The notes beneath the pieces were generated by a model. That model ran no database searches, was not told the origin of the DNA, and worked only from the letters and a program-made list of their open reading frames with translations. The position numbers and the translations under genes are program-made. DNA of 64,000 bases from Roseobacter sp. MED193. Lineage in GTDB: Bacteria > Pseudomonadota > Alphaproteobacteria > Rhodobacterales > Rhodobacteraceae. Location: the NCBI RefSeq assembly GCF_000152965.1, contig NZ_CH902583.1, forward strand, positions 741,343-805,342, in the 5' to 3' direction. This document shows, piece by piece, positions 344 to 9,786 of the stretch. How positions within the stretch are numbered: the stretch's first letter is position 1; each line of letters begins with the position of its first letter.

Positions 344-462
344 TGTTATGGACAAGCCGCTGCCGCCATCACTGTAGGGGTCCTCGTTCTAAACGTCGTG
401 CTTGCTGGCTACCCATCTTTCCTCTAGTTTCAATCCTAATTCCCAAGGGAGGACATTTTGCA

Positions 463-657
463 ATGCCCAACGTTGATATTTTGACCGTGAAAGAACTCGC
501 TGAGTATCTGAAAATCGCCGAGAAAACGGCATATCGGTTCGCATCAGAGGGTAAGGTTCCGGGCTTCAAGGTAGGGAGCGCGTGGCGGTTTCGCAAAAGC
601 GAAATTGATCGCTGGATCACTGAGCAAGAACAAAAACAAGAAGGGGCAGGAAAATGA
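463..657 (+). CDS. Small helix-turn-helix (excisionase/MerR-type) DNA-binding protein
   Basis: A 64-residue protein made almost entirely of an excisionase-type winged helix-turn-helix. The segment [20 protein letters not shown] is the helix-turn-helix, and [17 protein letters not shown] is the wing and last helix typical of this fold. The ATG at 463 is chosen because AAGGGAGGA sits just upstream; an in-frame ATG at 319 lacks such a site and gives a non-homologous leader. The stop overlaps the hsdM start (ATGA), so it is the first gene of the restriction operon. A role in regulating the operon is an inference from position; a recombination-directionality role is also possible for this fold. 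Confidence 0.8.
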
Positions 658-2198
658 CAGGCCAACAACAGCGCGACGAACTCCACCGTCAAATCTGGGC
701 TATTGCAAACGATGTGCGCGGGGCCGTTGATGGCTGGGACTTCAAACAGTTTGTTCTGGGTGCATTGTTTTACCGCTTCATCAGTGAGAACTTTGTCAAT
801 TATGCCGACGCAGGTGATGACAACGTCAACTATGCAGGTATGTCTGACAGTGAAGTCCCGGATGATTTTGTCATCGAGGCTGTGAAAACCAAGGGATATT
901 TCATCTATCCCAGCCAGTTGTTTTCAAATGTTGTGTCGCAGGCGAATACGAATGACAGTCTGAATACCGATCTTGCCGCCATCTTTGCCGCTATTGAGGG
1001 GTCGGCCAACGGATACCCGTCTGAAGAAGACATTTCTGGCCTGTTCGCTGATTTTGACACCACCAGCAACCGCCTTGGCAACACCGTCAAAGACAAAAAC
1101 GCGCGTCTAGCTGCGGTGCTTAAGGGCGTCGCTGGCTTGCCGTTGACCTTTGATGATAGTCAACGTGACCTGTTCGGCGATGCCTATGAATTTCTGATCA
1201 AGAACTACGCGGCCAATGCGGGTAAGTCCGGTGGCGAGTTCTTTACCCCGCCACACGTTTCTAAACTCATTGCTAAGATTGCGATCCACGGTCAGACGAC
1301 GATCAACAAGATCTTCGATCCTGCTTGCGGTTCCGGCTCTTTGCTGCTGCAGGCCAAATACTTCCTGAAGGATCATGGGGTTGAGGACGGTTACTTCGGG
1401 CAGGAAATCAACCACACCACGTACAACCTCGCCCGCATGAATATGTTTTTGCACAACATCAACTATGACAAGTTCAACATCCAACTGGGGAATACGCTGA
1501 CGGATCCACATTTCGGCGATGATAAGCCCTTTGATGCCATCGTCTCGAACCCGCCCTATTCAATCAAATGGAAGGGCTCTGATGACCCGACCTTGATCAA
1601 CGATGAACGCTTTGCCCCTGCTGGTGTACTGGCCCCGAAGTCCAAGGCTGACTTTGCCTTTGTGCTGCACGCGCTGAGCTATCTTTCTGCCAAGGGCCGC
1701 GCGGCGCTTGTTTGTTTTCCTGGTATTTTCTATCGCGGCGGCGCAGAGCAGAAGATCCGTAAGTATCTAGTGGATAATAACTATGTTGAAGCCGTCATCG
1801 CGCTTGCGCCTAACCTGTTTTACGGCACGACGATTGCGGTGAATATTCTGGTGCTGGCCAAGAATAAACAAAACACTGACGTGCAGTTCATTGATGCAAC
1901 AGGCGAAGACTTCTTTGACAAGAAAACCAACAACAATGAAATGTCTGATGATCATATTGCCGAGGTTATGAGGATCTTCGACAGTAAGGAAAACGAAGCC
2001 CACGTTGCCGAAACGGTTGATCAGGTCAAGATCATTGCGCAGGACTACAACCTGTCCGTCAGCGCCTATGTCGAACCCAAGGACACCCGAGTAAAGACCA
2101 ACATCACAGAGCTGAATGCAGAACTGGTCAAGACTGTTGCTAAGATCGATCAGCTTCGTTCGGAAATCGACGCCATCGTTGCGGAGATCGAGGCATGA
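654..2198 (+). CDS. hsdM: Type I restriction-modification system methyltransferase subunit HsdM
   Basis: N6-adenine DNA methyltransferase subunit of a type I system. Two HsdM and one HsdS make the methylase; adding HsdR makes the nuclease. The 514 residues comprise a helical HsdM N-terminal domain (about 10-150) and a methyltransferase domain with the AdoMet motif DPACGSGS (222-229) and the catalytic NPPY (299-302). The length is close to the roughly 520 residues of the EcoR124I (type IC) subunit. It overlaps the upstream small regulator and downstream hsdS by ATGA junctions, so the genes are translationally coupled. It appears intact, so methylation should persist even though the neighbouring prrC is broken. 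Confidence 0.96.
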
Positions 2199-3382
2199 GC
2201 AACCGGGGCTTTTTGGAAAAGCTACTAGATGGCGCTGTTGTTGAATGGAAGCAGCTTGGCGAACTGACAAATGTGAAAACGGGTCAATCGGTCAACAAGA
2301 ACAAGATAGCAAGCAATCCCGGGCCTTACGCGGTTATCAATAGCGGGCGCGAGCCTTTGGGCTTCATTGATGAATGGAATACAGACGATGACCCAATCGG
2401 CGTCACTACGCGGGGTGCCGGAGTCGGCTCAATCACATGGCAGGAGGGAAAGTACTTTCGAGGAAACCTCAACTACGCTGTCAGTATCAAGTCTGATGCG
2501 AAATTAGAAACTCGTTATCTCTATCATCTTTTGCTTGAAAAGCAGGCTGACATTCACGCGCTTTGCACCTTCGATGGTATCCCGGCTTTGAACGCTGGCA
2601 AACTCAAAGGCTTGGTGATCCCCATCCCATGCCCTGACGACCCAGAAAAATCGCTGGCGATACAGGCAGAGATTGTTCGGATTTTGGACAGCTTCACCGA
2701 GCTGACAGCCGAGCTGACAGCCGAGCTTAAGGCTCGCAAGCAACAATACAACCACTACCGAGATCAGCTTTTGAGTTTCGATGATGGGGATGTGGAATGG
2801 AAGACTTTGGGCGATGTGGTCGATTTCCAGAACGCCAAACCGCATGAAAAACTTGTCACACCAGACGGTGACGTCGCACTGTTGACTGCAGGCTATATTT
2901 CGACCGATGGCAGGTCAGCACGATTTGTAAAAACGACCGATGTTTTGACACCAGCCTTCAAGAACGACGTTGCAATGGTAATGAGTGATCTTCCCAATGG
3001 TCGGGCACTTGCCAAGACGTTTTTCGTTGACGAAGACGGCCGCTATGCAGCCAATCAACGTGTCTGTTTGCTGAGGGTGAAGGACCCAGAGTCTTTCTCT
3101 TCAAAGTTCCTCCACTACGTCATGAACCGCAATAAACAACTGCTCAGATACGATAGCGGCTACGATCAAACGCATCTCAAGAAAGACTGGATTCTCGGCG
3201 TTAAAGTTCCTGTACCCTCTGCCGAAGAACAAAACCGCATCGTCACCATCCTCGACAAGTTCAACACGCTGACCGCATCGCTCAGCGAGGGCCTGCCGCG
3301 TGAAATCAAGTTGCGTCAGCAGCAATACGAATACTACCGCGACCTGCTCTTGAGCTTCCCTAAACCCGAGGAGGCCGCATAG
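2195..3382 (+). CDS. hsdS: Type I restriction-modification specificity subunit HsdS (type IC-like)
   Basis: DNA-recognition subunit with two target-recognition domains (about residues 15-160 and 205-340). Each is followed by a helical conserved region ending in similar QQY-YRD-LLSF motifs. The central spacer helix carries LTAELTAEL, encoded by a 12-bp direct repeat at 2699-2722. In the EcoR124I family the number of TAEL units sets the length of the gap between the two half-sites. The 395-residue length and the spacer sequence place it in the type IC family. The start overlaps the hsdM stop (ATGA). The target sequence itself cannot be read from the protein. Confidence 0.95.
2699..2722 (+). repeat. 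Two 12-bp direct repeats encoding TAEL units in hsdS
   Basis: GAGCTGACAGCC occurs twice in tandem, followed by a partial third copy (GAGCT). It is in frame and encodes [10 protein letters not shown] in the central spacer helix. This is the counterpart of the repeat whose copy number distinguishes EcoR124I from EcoR124II. Confidence 0.9.
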
Positions 3383-3862
3383 ATGCCCGAGCAGGTAGAA
3401 GCCCAAGAAAAGCAAGACGACAAGATCAAGGCCGTTGCGGAAGAGCTCGTCAAATCAAACAAAAAAGTGCAGCTGATCTATGCCTTTAACGGTACGGGCA
3501 AAACCCGTCTGTCCCGCGCGGTGAAGGATCTGGTCGCCCCCAAGCCTGAGAATGGTGAGGAGGAAGAACCAACACGGCGCAAGATCCTTTACTATAGCGC
3601 GTTCACTGAAGACCTGTTCGTTTGGGACAATGATCGTGACAATGACGAAGTTCGAAAAATCGATATCCAGCCGAACTCTTTTACCGATTGGGTCTTGCGT
3701 GACCGAGGGCAGGATCAGAACATCATCGCCAATTTCCAGCGCTATACGAGCAGAAGTATCACGCCAAGTTTTCCCCTTAAGTCCAGAGTGGACTTTAGGG
3801 ATGAAGTGGTCCTGCTTTTTAGGACAGGTTTGCGGCTTGGCTAAGATGCATCTGGTTTATGT

Positions 3863-4717
3863 TCATGCCGCTTTTCGTGTTTCACTTTGTTCGAAGTATG
3901 CCGCGTCTGGCGTGCGCTTGTCGAGGGCGGTGTGAGGCCGCTCTGCGTTGTAAAAGCCGATCCAGTCGTCGATGATCCTTTTGGCTTGAAAGCCGTTGGT
4001 GATCTCGTGCAGATACACTGCCTCCTGCTTCAGGGATCGCCAGAGCCGCTCGATGAAGATGTTGTCCAGATAGCGGCCCCGCCCATCCATAGAGATTTTG
4101 ATATCGGCCTTCGTCAGCGTCTTGATCCAATCCGCGCCCGTGTATTGGCTACCCTGATCCGTATTCATGATCTCGGGCTTGCCATATTTGGCGATGGCTT
4201 CGTCCAGTGCTTCAACGCAAAAGCTGGCATCCAACGTATTTGACAGCCGCCAGGACAGCACTTTGCGTGTTGCCCAATCCATGATTGCCACCAGATACAG
4301 GAACCCGTTCTTCACTGGAATGTAGGTAATGTCGCTGCACCAAACATGGTTGGGCCGCGTAATCGACAGCTTTCTCAATAAGTATGGCCAGATCTTATGC
4401 TGCGGGTGCTTCTTGCTGGTGTTCGGCCCTTTGTAGATGGCCTGCAGCCCCATGATGCCCATCAGGCGACGCACGCGATGCCGTCCTGCCGAGAACCCTG
4501 ATTGGGGCAGATACGCCGCGATCTGGCGGCTGCCGAAGAACGGATACTTCGTAAATATCCGGTCAATCTCATGCATCAGATCAATCGTCGCCTGATCAAA
4601 GCCAACAGGCGTGTAATAGATTGAGGAACGGCTGATCTTGAGCAGCTTACACTGGCGCGTCAGGCTAAGGTCGGTGTTGTCCTTGCGGATCATCTCGCGG
4701 CGTTCAGACAGGCTCAT
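3863..4717 (-). CDS. IS3-family transposase OrfB (DDE integrase domain)
   Basis: The 284-residue catalytic half of an IS3 transposase. It has an N-terminal helix-turn-helix-like HTH_21 region (about 45-105) and a retroviral-integrase-like rve domain (about 115-275). The DDE residues are in CSDITYI, NTDQGSQ and IERLWRSLK, and the C-terminus has the usual FYNAERPHTAL. It starts at an ATG overlapping the orfA stop by 4 bp (ATGA) and lies in the -1 frame relative to orfA. It is therefore probably made both alone and as an OrfAB fusion by frameshifting at 4735-4741. Confidence 0.93.
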   Translation of the reverse strand: MSLSERREMIRKDNTDLSLTRQCKLLKISRSSIYYTPVGFDQATIDLMHEIDRIFTKYPFFGSRQIAAYLPQSGFSAGRHRVRRLMGIMGLQAIYKGPNTSKKHPQHKIWPYLLRKLSITRPNHVWCSDITYIPVKNGFLYLVAIMDWATRKVLSWRLSNTLDASFCVEALDEAIAKYGKPEIMNTDQGSQYTGADWIKTLTKADIKISMDGRGRYLDNIFIERLWRSLKQEAVYLHEITNGFQAKRIIDDWIGFYNAERPHTALDKRTPDAAYFEQSETRKAA

Positions 4718-5004
4718 CGCTTCAGCCCTTGTGACAAAAAATCATTTTCCACCGCCAGCTGACCAATCTTGGCATGAAGCTCTTTGATTTCGCCGTCTTT
4801 GTTCTCAGCCTTTTTGACCTTGTCCGAGAAAACGTTGACCATGCCATCAATCGCCTGCCGTTTCCACGTGCTCACCTGCGTAGGGTGCAGCTGGCGCTTC
4901 GATGCAATCTCCTGCACCGTCTTGTCACCGCGCAATGCTTCAAGGGCCACAGTCGCTTTAAACTTGTCTGAAAAATTCCGTCGCTTTGTCATTCTTGTAT
5001 CCAT
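4714..5004 (-). CDS. IS3-family transposase OrfA (helix-turn-helix)
   Basis: The 96-residue DNA-binding half of the transposase. A helix-turn-helix lies at about residues 8-55 (KFKATVALEAL...VQEIASKRQLHPTQVSTWK), followed by a leucine-rich coiled coil (about 60-92) used for multimerisation in this family. The start codon lies inside an inverted repeat (4997-5021) and has no clear ribosome-binding site; an alternative ATG is four codons later. The TTTTTTG at 4741-4735, in the right phase (T TTT TTG) about 20 nt before the stop, would move ribosomes into the orfB frame. Confidence 0.9.
   Translation of the reverse strand: MDTRMTKRRNFSDKFKATVALEALRGDKTVQEIASKRQLHPTQVSTWKRQAIDGMVNVFSDKVKKAENKDGEIKELHAKIGQLAVENDFLSQGLKR
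4735..4741 (-). promoter_or_regulatory. Programmed -1 frameshift heptamer of the IS
   Basis: Read on the minus strand the heptamer is T TTT TTG with zero-frame codons TTT TTG of orfA. A -1 slip continues as FVTRAEAMSLSERR with no stop into orfB. This is the usual IS3 way to make the OrfAB transposase. Confidence 0.75.
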
Positions 5005-5021
5005 TCAATCGGGTTGGATAC
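4997..5021 (-). repeat. Inverted repeat enclosing the transposase start codon
   Basis: GTATCCA and TGGATAC (7 bp each) are separated by 11 bp, and the orfA ATG (5004-5002) falls in the loop next to one arm. In RNA read in from outside, this hairpin could hide the start. That function is an inference. Confidence 0.6.
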
Positions 5022-6020
5022 ATCTTAGCACGCTGTCCGAATTTGCCGGACCACTTCAGGATGGCGCGAAAAAAATCGACACCTTTCCAGAGATCCGATT
5101 TGCCTACACTGGCGGCGATAACATTGAAAATGATGTGAAAATTTCAAAGGGCGAAGAAAGCAACCTAATCTGGAGCGTTTTCTATACGCTGTTGCAAGAG
5201 GTCGTTGAGATTCTGAGAGAGCCTGATCCAGAAAAGCGAGATGACGATGAATATGATGACCTCAAGTATGTGTTCATTGACGATCCGGTTAGCTCTCTTG
5301 ATGACAGTCATCTGATTGAGCTTGCGGTCGATCTGGCTGAGTTGATCAAAGCTACAGAGTCGGATCTTAAGTTCATCATCACCACACATAGCCCATTGTT
5401 TTACAATGTTCTCTTCAATGAATTTAACAACAAGAAATATAAGGATGTCGATAAAGTGAAGGCGTCGTTGCAAGCAGCTATTGCTAGCGGTGGCGATGTG
5501 GCTGAAGCCCTCGATACTCTTGTAGCACCTGACGATAAAGATAACGTCGCCGCAGCCTTGCAACTATCTGACAATGACGCCGCAATCGCGGCAGTGACCC
5601 GTCCCAAGATGATATACAAGCGAGAACGCTCAGCCAAATACAGGTTAAGCAAAGAAGCTGATGGTTCGTTTGCTTTGGCAGAGCAGGGGAATGACTCGCC
5701 GTTTTCTTACCATCTGCTGTTGTTGTCGGAGCTAAAAAATGCCGTCGATAGTGGTCAAGTTCGGAAATTTCATTTCAACTATCTAAGGAACGTTCTGGAG
5801 AAGACCGCAACATTCCTAGGTCACCATAGGTGGGGTGACCTACTGCCAAAGATCGATGGGAATCCAGATCCATTTGCCTCTCGAATAGTGAATTTGTCGA
5901 GCCATTCAGCGCACTCTGGCGAAGAGGTCGCAGAGCTCGAGGCGCGCGACCAAGAAAAGCTGGGCGAGCTCGTGAATTATTTATTTAGCCACTACCATTT
6001 TTTTAAGCCGAAAGAACAAA

Positions 6021-9000
6021 ATGCCTGAGCAGACAACACCGATTGCAGAGACGCCGAATTACATCGTTCTTGATAAGTACACCAAGGACTGGGTGGCCGC
6101 TGACCAGTACCAAAGCGAAGATGATCTGGAGCGCGAGCTGGTTCAGGATCTACAGAACCAAGGCTATGAATTCTTATCTGCCCTGACCACCCCTGCGGCC
6201 ATGCTGGCCAACGTGCGGGTGCAGCTTGAGGCCTTGAACAGCGTCCGTTTTTCTGATGATGAATGGCAGCGGTTCAATGACAGCTATCTGGATAATCCCA
6301 GCGACAGCATCACCGACAAAGCGCGCAAGATCCATGATGACTACATCCTTGATTTTGTCTTTGATGATGGGCGCATCAAGAACATCTATCTGTTTGATAA
6401 GAAAAACAAAGCACGCAACAAACTGCAGGTGATCAAACAGTTTGAACAGGTGGGCACTCATGCCAACCGCTATGATGTGACAATTTTGGTAAATGGTCTG
6501 CCCCTTGTGCAGATCGAGCTAAAGCGGCGCGGCGTGGCCATTCGCGAGGCGTTTAACCAGATCCACCGGTACAGCAAGGAAAGCTTCAACAGTGAAAACT
6601 CGTTGTATAAGTTTTTGCAGGTCTTTGTGATCTCAAACGGTACGGACACGCGCTATTTCGCCAATACCGTCAAGCGTAACAAGAACAGCTTTGACTTCAC
6701 CATGAACTGGGCAAAATCAGACAATGATTTGATCCGCGACCTGAAAGATTTCACCGCGACGTTCTTTCAAAAGCGTGTTCTGCTGGACGTGTTGTTGCAA
6801 TATTCGGTCTTTGATGCGGGCAATACCCTGCTGATAATGCGCCCCTATCAGATCGCTGCAACCGAGCGGATCCTGTGGAAGATCAAAGGTTCGTATCAGT
6901 CCAAAACGTGGAGCAAGCCAGAAAGCGGCGGCTATACCTGGCACACAACCGGATCAGGCAAGACGCTGACCAGTTTCAAGGCGGCGCGGTTGGCGACCGA
7001 GCTGGATTTCATCGACAAGGTGTTTTTCGTCGTGGATCGCAAGGACCTCGATTTTCAAACGATGAAAGAATACCAGAAGTTTTCGCCCGACAGTGTTAAC
7101 GGGTCTGACAGCACGGCTGGGCTAAAGCGCAATCTGGGTAAGGACGACAACAAGATCATTGTCACCACGATCCAGAAGCTGAACAATCTGATGAAGTCCG
7201 AGGGGGAGCTGCCGGTCTACAAGCAGCAGGTGGTGTTCATTTTCGATGAATGTCACCGCAGCCAGTTTGGTGAGGCCCAGAAGAACCTACAAAAGAAGTT
7301 TAAGCGGTTCTATCAGTTTGGCTTTACCGGAACGCCGATTTTTCCGGAAAATGCTCTTGGGGCGGAAACCACGGCCAGCGTATTCGGGCGCGAATTGCAT
7401 TCCTATGTGATTTCGGATGCGATCCGCGATGAGAAGGTTCTGAAGTTCAAGGTTGATTACAATGATGTCCGTCCGCAATTCAAAGCGATTGAGAGCGAAC
7501 AGGACGAGAAGAAGCTGAGTGCGGCGGAAAACCGGCAGGCGCTTTTGCATCCCGAGCGGATCAAAGAGGTCTCACAATATATCCTGAACAACTTCCGCCA
7601 GAAAACCCATCGGACACAGGCAGGCACAGGCGGCTTTAACGCCATGTTCGCCGTGAGCAGTGTCGATGCCGCCAAGCTGTACTATGAGGCGTTGAACGAG
7701 CTGCAGAAGGACCGCGACAAGCCTCTGAAGATTGCCACCATCTTTTCCTTTGCCGCGAATGAAGCACAGGATGCCATCGGCGACATTCACGATGAAAGCT
7801 TTGACGTGTCTGCCATGAACAGCAGCGCCAAAGAGTTTCTGAATGCGGCGATTGGCGACTACAACGCATATTTCAAAACGAACTTCAGTGTCGATAGTAG
7901 CGGTTTTCAGAATTACTATCGTGATCTGGCTGCACGCGTGCGGTCGCAGGACATTGATCTGTTGATTGTTGTGGGAATGTTCCTGACCGGTTTTGATGCG
8001 CCGACACTGAACACCTTATTCGTCGATAAGAACCTGCGATATCACGGCTTGATGCAGGCCTTTTCCCGCACTAACCGGATTTTTGATGCGACGAAGACTT
8101 TTGGAAATATCGTTGCCTTTCGTGACCTTGAGCAGGCCACCGTGGATGCGATCACGCTCTTTGGTGACAAAAATACGAAAAATGTCGTTCTCGAAAAGAG
8201 TTACGATGAATATATGAACGGCTTTCAGGATCAGGAAACCGGTAAGGCACGGCGCGGGTTCACTGAGATTGTGGAAGAACTGGAAGAGCGGTTCCCAAAT
8301 CCTGAAGATATCGTCAAAGAATCCGACAAGAAGGCGTTTGCAAAACTGTTTGGTGAATACCTGAGGGCCGAGAATATTCTTCAGAATTATGATGAGTTCG
8401 CGGCCTTGAAAGCGTTTCAGCACATTGACCCGTCTGATGCAGACGCCGTTGAGGCCTTTAAGGAAAAACACTACCTGAACGACGAGGATTTACGTGAACT
8501 GACTGCAATCAAGTTGCCCTCTGAAAGATCGGTGCAAGACTACCGGTCAACCTATAACGACATTCGCGACTGGTTGCGGCAGGAGAAGGCAGGAAAAGAG
8601 CAGGAGGAAACCAGCATCGACTGGGATGATATCGTGTTCGAGGTTGACCTTCTCAAGTCGCAGGAAATCAATCTGGACTATATCCTTAAGCTGATTTTTG
8701 AGAAAAACAAGCACGCCAAAGACAAGGGGGATCTGATTGAAGAAGCCCGTCGCATCATCCGTGCCAGCCTTGGACACCGGGCAAAGGAAGGTCTGCTTAT
8801 TGAGTTCATCAACGCAACCGATCTGGGGCAAATGGACGATAAAGCTAGTGTGATTGATGCATTCTTTACCTTTGCAAGGGCAGAGCAGCAACGCGAAGTT
8901 GAAGATCTCATCAATTCCGAAGACCTTAAGCCAAAAGAGGCCAAGCGCTATATATCGGCGTCGATCAAACGCAACTTTGCCAGCGAAAACGGAGATGATC

Positions 9001-9122
9001 TAAACGATATCCTGCCCAAGATGAGTCCGCTGAACTCTCAGTTCCGCACGAAGAAGCAAAGTGTTTTCCAGAAAATATCTGCCTTGGTCGAGAGGTTTAA
9101 AGACGTTGGTGGGAAAATCTAG
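6021..9122 (+). CDS. hsdR: Type I restriction endonuclease and translocase subunit HsdR (type IC)
   Basis: Motor and nuclease subunit of 1033 residues, nearly the length of EcoR124I HsdR (1038). The N-terminal PD-(D/E)xK nuclease has D152 and E166-x-K168 (IELKRRG), almost the same numbering as in EcoR124I. The superfamily-2 helicase motor has Walker A TTGSGKT (309-315), DECH (409-412) and FTGTP. A helical C-terminal domain binds the methylase. All motifs are intact. It starts 8 bp inside the end of prrC, the same order as in the E. coli prr locus. The IS in prrC lies upstream and may reduce expression from the hsdM side, so local promoters would matter. Confidence 0.96.
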
Positions 9123-9305
9123 CGTTCGAACAGTTGAGTCACTCGAACCGACTGACACACATTGTTTGAGGTTAAGCTGGTTCATGCGGAATTTATGGCG
9201 ATTCAGCCACAGTTCCCTCGAAGGCAATTTTGTGTTTTCGCCACCAAAGTCGCCACCAATTTCCAGCGCTCGACTTTTTGCAATCATGTAAGTCATTGAT
9301 TTTAT

Positions 9306-9379
9306 TGGAGGCGAGTACCGGAATCGAACCGGTGTACACGGATTTGCAATCCGCTGCGTCACCACTCCGCCAACTCGCC
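9306..9379 (-). tRNA. tRNA-Cys (GCA)
   Basis: On the minus strand the sequence begins GGCGAGTTGGCGGAGTGG and folds as a cloverleaf. The acceptor GGCGAGT (9379-9373) pairs with ACTCGCC (9316-9310), the discriminator is U, and CCA is encoded at 9308-9306. The anticodon GCA sits in the loop of GGATTGCAAATCC, and the T arm has GGTTCGATTCC. Its 3' end faces the restriction-modification island, which is the usual orientation for an island inserted at a tRNA 3' end. Confidence 0.97.
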
Positions 9380-9786
9380 TTTAGTGACCGTTGTATGGCG
9401 GGTGGTGTCCTGCCACACGGTCTGGGGACCTTCTATTAATGTTCCGTTTTGTTCGCAAGAGGCAAAACGACAATTACTCCGGAAAATCGCCTTTCAAAAA
9501 ATCACGCATTTTGGGGTCTTCTGCTTCGGTATCGCGTCGTACTGGTCAGGCCAGTTCCCTGCTGAGCAACCCCACCTAATTTGACTGGTCCCTTTGTAAA
9601 ACTGGCAGGGCAGATCAGGTGGTTTTTCCAAGAAGCCAAGCACTTACGACGAAACAGAACCACGTATTTCGGTGCCAAGTCGAGCGCCCCCTCCCCCTCT
9701 TCGAAAGCAGATTATGTGCAAATCAGGATCAGGCGAGGTGCGAAGTCGCTCTCTGTAGGCTATATCTGCAGATTGAAGGAAGAGCC
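9380..9786. other. 407-bp intergenic region between tRNA-Cys and the LysR gene
   Basis: I see no convincing gene here; the overlapping reading frames have no start signals or familiar composition. It holds an inverted repeat ACTGG-TCAGG-CCAGT at 9541-9555, and 30 bp later a second TGACTGGTC half-site. These resemble operators of GntR/FadR-type regulators (TGGTC...GACCA). They may be leftovers of a lost transporter locus, given the DctQ-like tail on the next gene. Confidence 0.4.

What the first reader, a model, noticed from the sequence alone, without database searches (positions are those of the whole stretch)
3383..6028. Type IC locus whose anticodon nuclease gene prrC is interrupted by a precisely excisable IS
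The sequence shows an hsdM-hsdS-X-hsdR order in which X, once the 1257-bp IS and one GGA copy are removed, is a continuous 461-codon ATPase. It has Walker A, signature and Walker B motifs and an R-x3-E...H triad (codons at 5786, 5798, 5903) like the PrrC nuclease. Established knowledge: PrrC is a suicide tRNA-Lys nuclease kept silent by its type IC partner. Inference: the cell kept restriction but lost the suicide arm. No other prrC damage is evident in either fragment, so the insertion is probably recent and could be reversible.
Basis: partly seen in the sequence, partly recalled or inferred. Interest (0 to 1): 0.75.

Follow-up and report, generated by a model that had tools for sequence, protein, structure and literature searches.

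The report
Insertion element splits prrC suicide nuclease
In this bacterium a mobile DNA element has landed inside prrC, a self-destruct gene that normally guards a DNA-restriction system against viruses; the restriction genes are whole, so the finding is real but a fairly ordinary gene loss, with one oddity: this branch of PrrC carries an extra segment between its two working domains.

Summary
The locus is hsdM-hsdS-prrC-hsdR. A 1257-bp IS3-family element (3802-5058, GGA on both sides) splits prrC. Searched apart, both pieces match PrrC (PADLOC 2.8e-44 and 3.5e-86), and the R/E/H codons at 5786, 5798 and 5903 align with E. coli PrrC R320/E324/H356. A Ruegeria MAG (L045) carries the same locus with an uninterrupted 461-codon prrC. 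The element moved recently: five full copies and one truncated copy in this genome are 100% identical, and both prrC pieces differ from L045 mainly by silent changes. PrrC lost with hsdM, hsdS and hsdR whole is well supported; that restriction is still expressed is untested. 'Precisely excisable' and 'reversible' are not supported: IS3 elements move by copy-and-paste. Broken prrC is uncommon: 1 of 42 other genomes, also cut by an insertion element, and 0 of 30 viral-contig loci. New here is a ~64-residue insert at the ATPase/nuclease hinge, seen only in this gene and L045 and not in 75 other PrrCs. Overall: an ordinary IS knockout in a known system, plus a mildly interesting PrrC variant.

The parts
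409..657 (+). small helix-turn-helix ORF (HTH_17 / excisionase type) upstream of hsdM; role in the locus unknown
   Evidence: PF12728 4.1e-17; TIGR01764 3e-13, MAD1 model 79.7 bits against a cut-off of 80
654..2198 (+). hsdM, 514 aa, whole
   Evidence: TIGR00497 4.4e-183; 76% identical to HsdM of E. coli L047
2195..3382 (+). hsdS, 395 aa, whole
   Evidence: PF01420 1.5e-34, two stretches
3383..3801 (+). prrC 5' piece: Walker A region, about residues 1-139
   Evidence: PADLOC PrrC 2.8e-44; 48% identical to E. coli PrrC over 139 columns
3799..3801 (.). left copy of target-site duplication GGA
3802..5058 (-). IS3-family insertion sequence, 1257 bp, imperfect terminal inverted repeats, transposase frames on the minus strand
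3863..4717 (-). IS orfB (integrase core, 284 aa)
   Evidence: NF033516 1.2e-78, PF00665 5.7e-25
4714..5004 (-). IS orfA (HTH_Tnp_1, 96 aa)
   Evidence: NF033516 5.7e-11 (below that model's cut-off on its own), PF01527 3.7e-10
5059..5061 (.). right copy of target-site duplication GGA
5062..6028 (+). prrC 3' piece: ABC signature, Walker B, switch His, linker insert, nuclease domain with R/E/H triad
   Evidence: PADLOC PrrC 3.5e-86; alignments
5438..5599 (+). 54-codon core of the linker insert between ATPase and nuclease domains, shared only with L045 among the proteins compared
6021..9122 (+). hsdR, 1033 aa, whole, start overlaps prrC stop by 8 bases
   Evidence: PF12008 EcoR124_C 1.1e-67; 75% identical to HsdR of E. 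coli L047

Best explanation
This is a type IC restriction-modification locus with a PrrC anticodon-nuclease guard, in which a recently active IS3-family element has inserted between the Walker A part and the signature/Walker B part of prrC. Shown: both pieces are PrrC, the triad is kept, the other three genes are whole, a relative has the uninterrupted gene. Inferred: no functional PrrC is made, because the N-piece (139 residues plus an IS-encoded tail) lacks the nuclease domain and the C-piece lacks Walker A, which E. coli PrrC needs. The cell therefore keeps (if hsdR is still transcribed) DNA cleavage without the backup that shuts translation down when a phage inhibits the restriction enzyme. 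The gene was under purifying selection until recently, and the insertion is probably a chance IS hit, not a switch.
For: PADLOC PrrC hits of the separate pieces; triad, Walker and signature columns aligned to E. coli PrrC; R-E-H triad in all 77 aligned sequences that cover it (window C-piece, L045 and 75 others). E. coli triad numbering from PMC2610378 (passages). Uninterrupted 461-aa homologue in the same locus of L045; the DNA alignment runs gap-free over 577 columns up to the IS on the left (3226-3802) and resumes on the right (5053-9382, six gap openings). Five full and one truncated IS copies at 100% identity; matching 3-bp duplications at 4 of the 5 full copies. dN/dS against L045: hsdM 0.063, hsdR 0.044, prrC N-piece 0.074, C-piece 0.103. 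All three PrrC matches in this genome are pieces of this locus and only one EcoR124_C HsdR is found. Walker A mutations abolish E. coli PrrC activity (PMC3014915, passage).
Against: No expression data; a polar effect on hsdR is possible. The C-piece frame is open into the IS (4784-6028) with several start-like codons, so a fragment could be made. The nearest relative found is about 86% identical in DNA, so the date of insertion is bounded only by IS identity. One full IS copy (L004) lacks a matching duplication. The prrC pieces have somewhat higher dN/dS than hsdM and hsdR.
Confidence: 0.9

Rival explanations
1. The insertion is selected: losing the suicide arm is favoured (for example after the restriction enzyme was impaired, or in phage-poor settings), and prrC is a preferred target of inactivation among the four genes.
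For: A second, independent prrC, in G675 (L079/L121), is also cut by an insertion element with hsdR whole; hsdM and hsdS were not found in the 16.4 kb taken there.
Against: prrC broken in 1 of 42 other genomes, hsdR in 0 of the 36 in which it was found: no clear excess, and numbers are small. 0 of 30 viral-contig loci have a broken prrC. 6 of 6 E. coli genomes with the canonical prrC cover it fully, and 14 more with a different prrC cover the query at 93-100%.
Confidence: 0.12
2. The insertion is a reversible phase switch: precise excision restores PrrC in part of the population.
For: Duplication intact and both flanks undamaged.
Against: IS3 family moves by copy-and-paste (PMC3299598); a 3-bp duplication offers little for recombination (recalled); four identical full copies and one truncated copy elsewhere point to copying.
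Confidence: 0.03
3. The IS blocks hsdR too (polarity), so restriction is silent as well and only modification remains.
For: IS is upstream of hsdR; prrC and hsdR overlap by 8 bases, suggesting coupled translation; the scan shows no promoter-like site on the plus strand between the IS and hsdR.
Against: hsdR is under strong constraint versus L045 (0.044), though the insertion is too young for this to tell; the scan knows only the sigma-70 consensus and found no more sites than shuffles.
Confidence: 0.3
4. The protein is not PrrC but another AAA_13 / Rad50-like ATPase (RloC, PtuA).
For: Weak PF13166 and other ATPase hits.
Against: The PrrC model outscores all others by far, gene order is canonical, triad aligned, and the length (461 aa in L045) leaves no room for the long coiled coil of RloC.
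Confidence: 0.01

Closest known systems
E. coli PrrC / EcoprrI (prr locus)
   Same: hsdM-hsdS-prrC-hsdR order, HsdR 75% and HsdM 76% identical to the E. coli locus L047, R320/E324/H356 columns identical
   Different: prrC split by an IS; linker between switch His and nuclease domain is 106 residues against 42
PrrC170 system of Klebsiella quasipneumoniae (PMC11555353, passages)
   Same: type I RM with PrrC, reported to arrest growth and to act on tRNA-Lys; reported 35% identical to EcoPrrC, so divergent PrrCs can keep the substrate
   Different: functional; its sequence was not compared with this window
Ruegeria sp. MAG locus L045
   Same: same four genes, 86% identical PrrC C-part, same linker insert, tRNA-Cys behind hsdR
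   Different: no IS in prrC; hsdS recognition parts differ (hsdS dN 0.55)
RloC
   Same: ABC ATPase plus ACNase triad (PMC2610378, passages)
   Different: zinc-hook coiled coil, about twice the size, rarely linked to type I RM (same passages)

Membership tests
PrrC anticodon nuclease | sequence match to the PrrC family model | tested here: met
   2.8e-44 and 3.5e-86 for the two pieces
[quoted passage not shown]
   A1 alignment: NGTGKTR, KISKGEES, FIDDPVSSLDD, TTH, spread over two separate pieces
PrrC anticodon nuclease | catalytic triad Arg-x3-Glu...His (E. coli R320, E324, H356) | tested here: met
PrrC anticodon nuclease | linked to a type IC hsd locus between hsdS and hsdR | tested here: met
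PrrC anticodon nuclease | one uninterrupted reading frame | tested here: not met
   IS at 3802-5058; so this is a broken member, not a working one
PrrC anticodon nuclease | tRNA-recognition residue Asp287 | tested here: inconclusive
   aligned to a gap in A1 and to Asp in two larger alignments
PrrC anticodon nuclease | cleaves tRNA-Lys, silenced by Hsd, freed by an anti-restriction peptide | not testable with these tools
   needs biochemistry
Type IC restriction-modification | HsdR with EcoR124-type C-terminal domain, HsdM of the same class | tested here: met
   PF12008 1.1e-67; 75-76% identity to the E. coli prr-type locus
IS3 family | orfA HTH plus orfB DDE integrase in two overlapping frames, terminal inverted repeats, 3-bp duplication | tested here: met
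IS3 family | programmed frameshift making OrfAB | not tested
   orfA 4714-5004 and orfB 3863-4717 overlap by 4 bases

The most novel reading that the evidence does not exclude
The window and the Ruegeria MAG define a PrrC subgroup with an extra ~64-residue helical module at the hinge between the NTPase and nuclease domains (E. coli residue about 265). The module is under constraint and could change how the restriction enzyme or a phage signal is relayed to the nuclease; the window would then be a natural knockout of this variant, with an intact sister to compare.
Probability: 0.3. Interest if true: 0.45.

Novelty: new member of a known kind. Interest (0 to 1): 0.27.

Why it matters
PrrC is a guard that punishes phages for inhibiting restriction. 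A natural guard-minus locus with whole restriction genes, and an uninterrupted sister locus, make a pair for asking what the guard costs and buys outside E. coli. The survey suggests that such loss is uncommon, so the guard is usually kept. The hinge insert offers a handle on how PrrC is switched.

Tried and rejected
Rejected: PrrC as RloC/PtuA/other AAA_13 protein. Not supported: excess of prrC breakage over hsdR breakage (1 of 42 versus 0 of 36; the window itself left out because it was chosen for being broken). Not found: a second PrrC or a second EcoR124-type HsdR in the genome (with PF13166 gave the two prrC pieces and one further weak match under the cut-off at C1:456953, not followed up).

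Led nowhere: PDB by sequence, only chance-level hits for either piece (best E 0.4 and 0.093) and none at E <= 0.1 for the 7-sequence profile; Foldseek gave mostly ABC/Rad50/SMC-type ATPases at low TM-score (0.2-0.3 on the query). The linker insert was not found in plasmids or in 294 other genomes of the family. Phage records hold no match to the L045 protein. The first viral scan with L045 alone gave no relative. The single-sequence structure model was poor (pLDDT 42) and not used. Paper searches 'prrC + insertion sequence + restriction + disrupted' (0 papers), 'prrC + pseudogene' (7 papers; two opened for passages), 'anticodon nuclease + Roseobacter' (0) and 'PrrC + orthologues + type I restriction + hsdR + insertion' (14 papers with at least 4 terms, 10 listed; three of them opened for passages) showed me no report of an IS-split prrC; this is an open-access library, and most listed papers were not opened.

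Rows dropped before counts: 29 of 38 matching genomes had only hits weaker than 1e-20 and were not counted as prrC nor examined further. In one search, two loci (L070, L079) failed my motif filter; L070's gene was recovered as L112 (399 aa, one frame), L079 is the broken one. In one search, 27 of the 31 available proteins (L045 plus 30 viral) were used for the structure alignment; L133, L145, L150 and L151 were left out as apparent close kin of rows already in. Some loci appear to be the same genome twice (L105 and L148, probably L093 and L130), so the 75 comparison proteins include near-duplicates.
Full report
What is there. The window is a stretch of contig C1 of a 4.67-Mb genome. From 654 to 9122 it holds hsdM, hsdS, a split prrC and hsdR, all on the plus strand. 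HsdM matches TIGR00497 at 4.4e-183, HsdS matches PF01420 and HsdR carries the EcoR124-type C-terminal domain PF12008 at 1.1e-67. HsdR and HsdM are 75% and 76% identical to those of an E. coli prr-type locus (L047). This is a type IC system.

The split gene. Searched apart, 3383-3799 and 5063-6025 match the PADLOC PrrC model at 2.8e-44 and 3.5e-86. Aligned with two E. coli PrrCs of 396 aa, another E. coli homologue, a Klebsiella homologue and members from the window's own bacterial family, they carry NGTGKTR (Walker A), KISKGEES (signature), FIDDPVSSLDD (Walker B) and TTH (switch), and the codons at 5786, 5798 and 5903 fall on E. coli R320, E324 and H356, the triad given in PMC2610378 (passages).

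The insertion. Between the pieces lies a 1257-bp element with imperfect inverted repeats and two overlapping minus-strand frames matching the IS3-family transposase. GGA flanks it on both sides. The genome holds five full copies, this one included, and one copy lacking its first 40 bases, all 100% identical; four of the five full copies have a matching 3-bp duplication, one (L004) does not. Of the 11 other genomes of the genus searched, 9 have some match and one of these (G301) a full-length relative at 86%. So the element was active recently in this lineage.

The uninterrupted state. A Ruegeria sp. MAG contig (L045) encodes the same locus with a single 461-codon prrC. Window and L045 align gap-free over 577 columns from 3226 up to the IS, and again from 5053 to 9382 with six gap openings. 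dN/dS between the two is 0.063 for hsdM, 0.044 for hsdR, 0.074 and 0.103 for the two prrC pieces; no stop or frameshift is seen in either piece. Of the 11 other genomes of the genus, only G295 has prrC, as one 407-aa frame.

How it most likely works now. In E. coli, PrrC is kept latent by the Hsd complex and released when the phage peptide Stp inhibits the enzyme; Walker A mutations abolish its activity (PMC3014915, passages). Here the N-piece has Walker A but no nuclease, and the C-piece has the nuclease but no Walker A, so I infer that no working PrrC is made. Restriction genes are whole, so 'restriction kept, suicide arm lost' is the likely state, but expression of hsdR downstream of the IS is untested; no promoter-like site on the plus strand was found between IS and hsdR, and the scan found no more sites than shuffles. 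All PrrC matches in this genome belong to this locus and only one EcoR124-type HsdR was found.

Reversibility. [quoted passage not shown] that the donor copy stays behind is recalled. I see no support for 'precisely excisable', but excision could not be tested directly.

How unusual is it? PrrC was sought in 295 genomes of the family, 12 of the genus, 390 of the order, 398 of the phylum and 385 of the class, with overlaps. At E <= 1e-20, 42 genomes other than this one have it. Larger stretches of all 42 were taken: prrC is one open frame in 41 of 42 (in one of these, L125, it starts at the contig end); hsdR is one frame of 992 aa or more in the 36 where it was found; in the other six none was found, and there prrC lies within 1.5 kb of the contig end behind which hsdR would be expected. 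The one broken prrC (G675, L079/L121) is cut by an insertion element between the triad Glu and His, with a second copy upstream; hsdR is whole, and hsdM, hsdS and the N-part were not found in the stretch. In 30 of 30 viral-contig loci prrC is one frame, four of them starting at a contig end; that scan relied on motifs near the N-terminus. Six of 5426 E. coli genomes carry a prrC close to L047, all six at full coverage; 14 others carry one closer to the Klebsiella gene, at 93-100% coverage. So IS-broken prrC recurs but is uncommon, with no clear excess over hsdR.

The oddity. From the switch His to the position of E. coli Tyr294, window and L045 have 106 residues; 75 other PrrCs have 37-60 (near-duplicates included). 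The extra stretch sits near the domain boundary (residue 265 in E. coli, PMC3014915), is under constraint (dN/dS 0.17 over 54 codons; higher than the rest of the C-piece at 0.087) and in the AlphaFold model of L045 PrrC (27-sequence alignment, mean pLDDT 77.5) forms four short helices at moderate confidence, block means about 58-74. It was found in none of the 294 other family genomes and in no plasmid record. Its function is unknown; a regulatory hinge module is a guess.

Verdict. The PrrC variant is the part with some novelty.

Noticed in passing
L090, L092, L096, L098, L102, L104, L106, L109, L110, L114, L115, L117, L119, L120, L126, L149, L150, L152, L153, L156: A second class of PrrC loci with the order hsdR-(hsdS)-prrC-hsdM and an HsdR only about 32-33% identical to the E. 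coli type IC one (hsdS was often not recognised by my references). The passage read in PMC2610378 says PrrC is invariably linked to type IC, so this class may deserve its own look.
   Followed up: partly
L079 / L121 (G675): Independent prrC broken by an insertion element (IS5-like by recall, no family search done) lying between the triad Glu and His, with a second copy of the same transposase in inverse orientation upstream; hsdR whole.
   Followed up: partly
window 9306-9379 (-); L045 14242-14315; L091 4726-4799: tRNA-Cys(GCA) lies directly behind hsdR in 3 of the 6 loci scanned (not in L089, L093, L121): possibly a shared site of island exchange.
   Followed up: partly
window 409-657: Helix-turn-helix ORF before hsdM that nearly reaches the cut-off of the MAD1 model (79.7 bits, cut-off 80), a part of another methylation-linked defence system.
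   Followed up: no
G000:C1:2644899-2646155 (L004): Full-length identical IS copy without matching target duplication, about 7 kb from another copy (L003): possible IS-mediated rearrangement there.
   Followed up: no
L093 (G295) 5274-7568: The HsdM frame runs on into an HsdS-like stretch in one 764-codon open frame, an apparent M-S fusion beside an intact prrC.
   Followed up: no
L131 7280-7987: Viral-contig prrC locus in which only a 235-codon frame matching the C-terminal half of HsdS was found, so hsdS may be broken there while prrC is whole.
   Followed up: no
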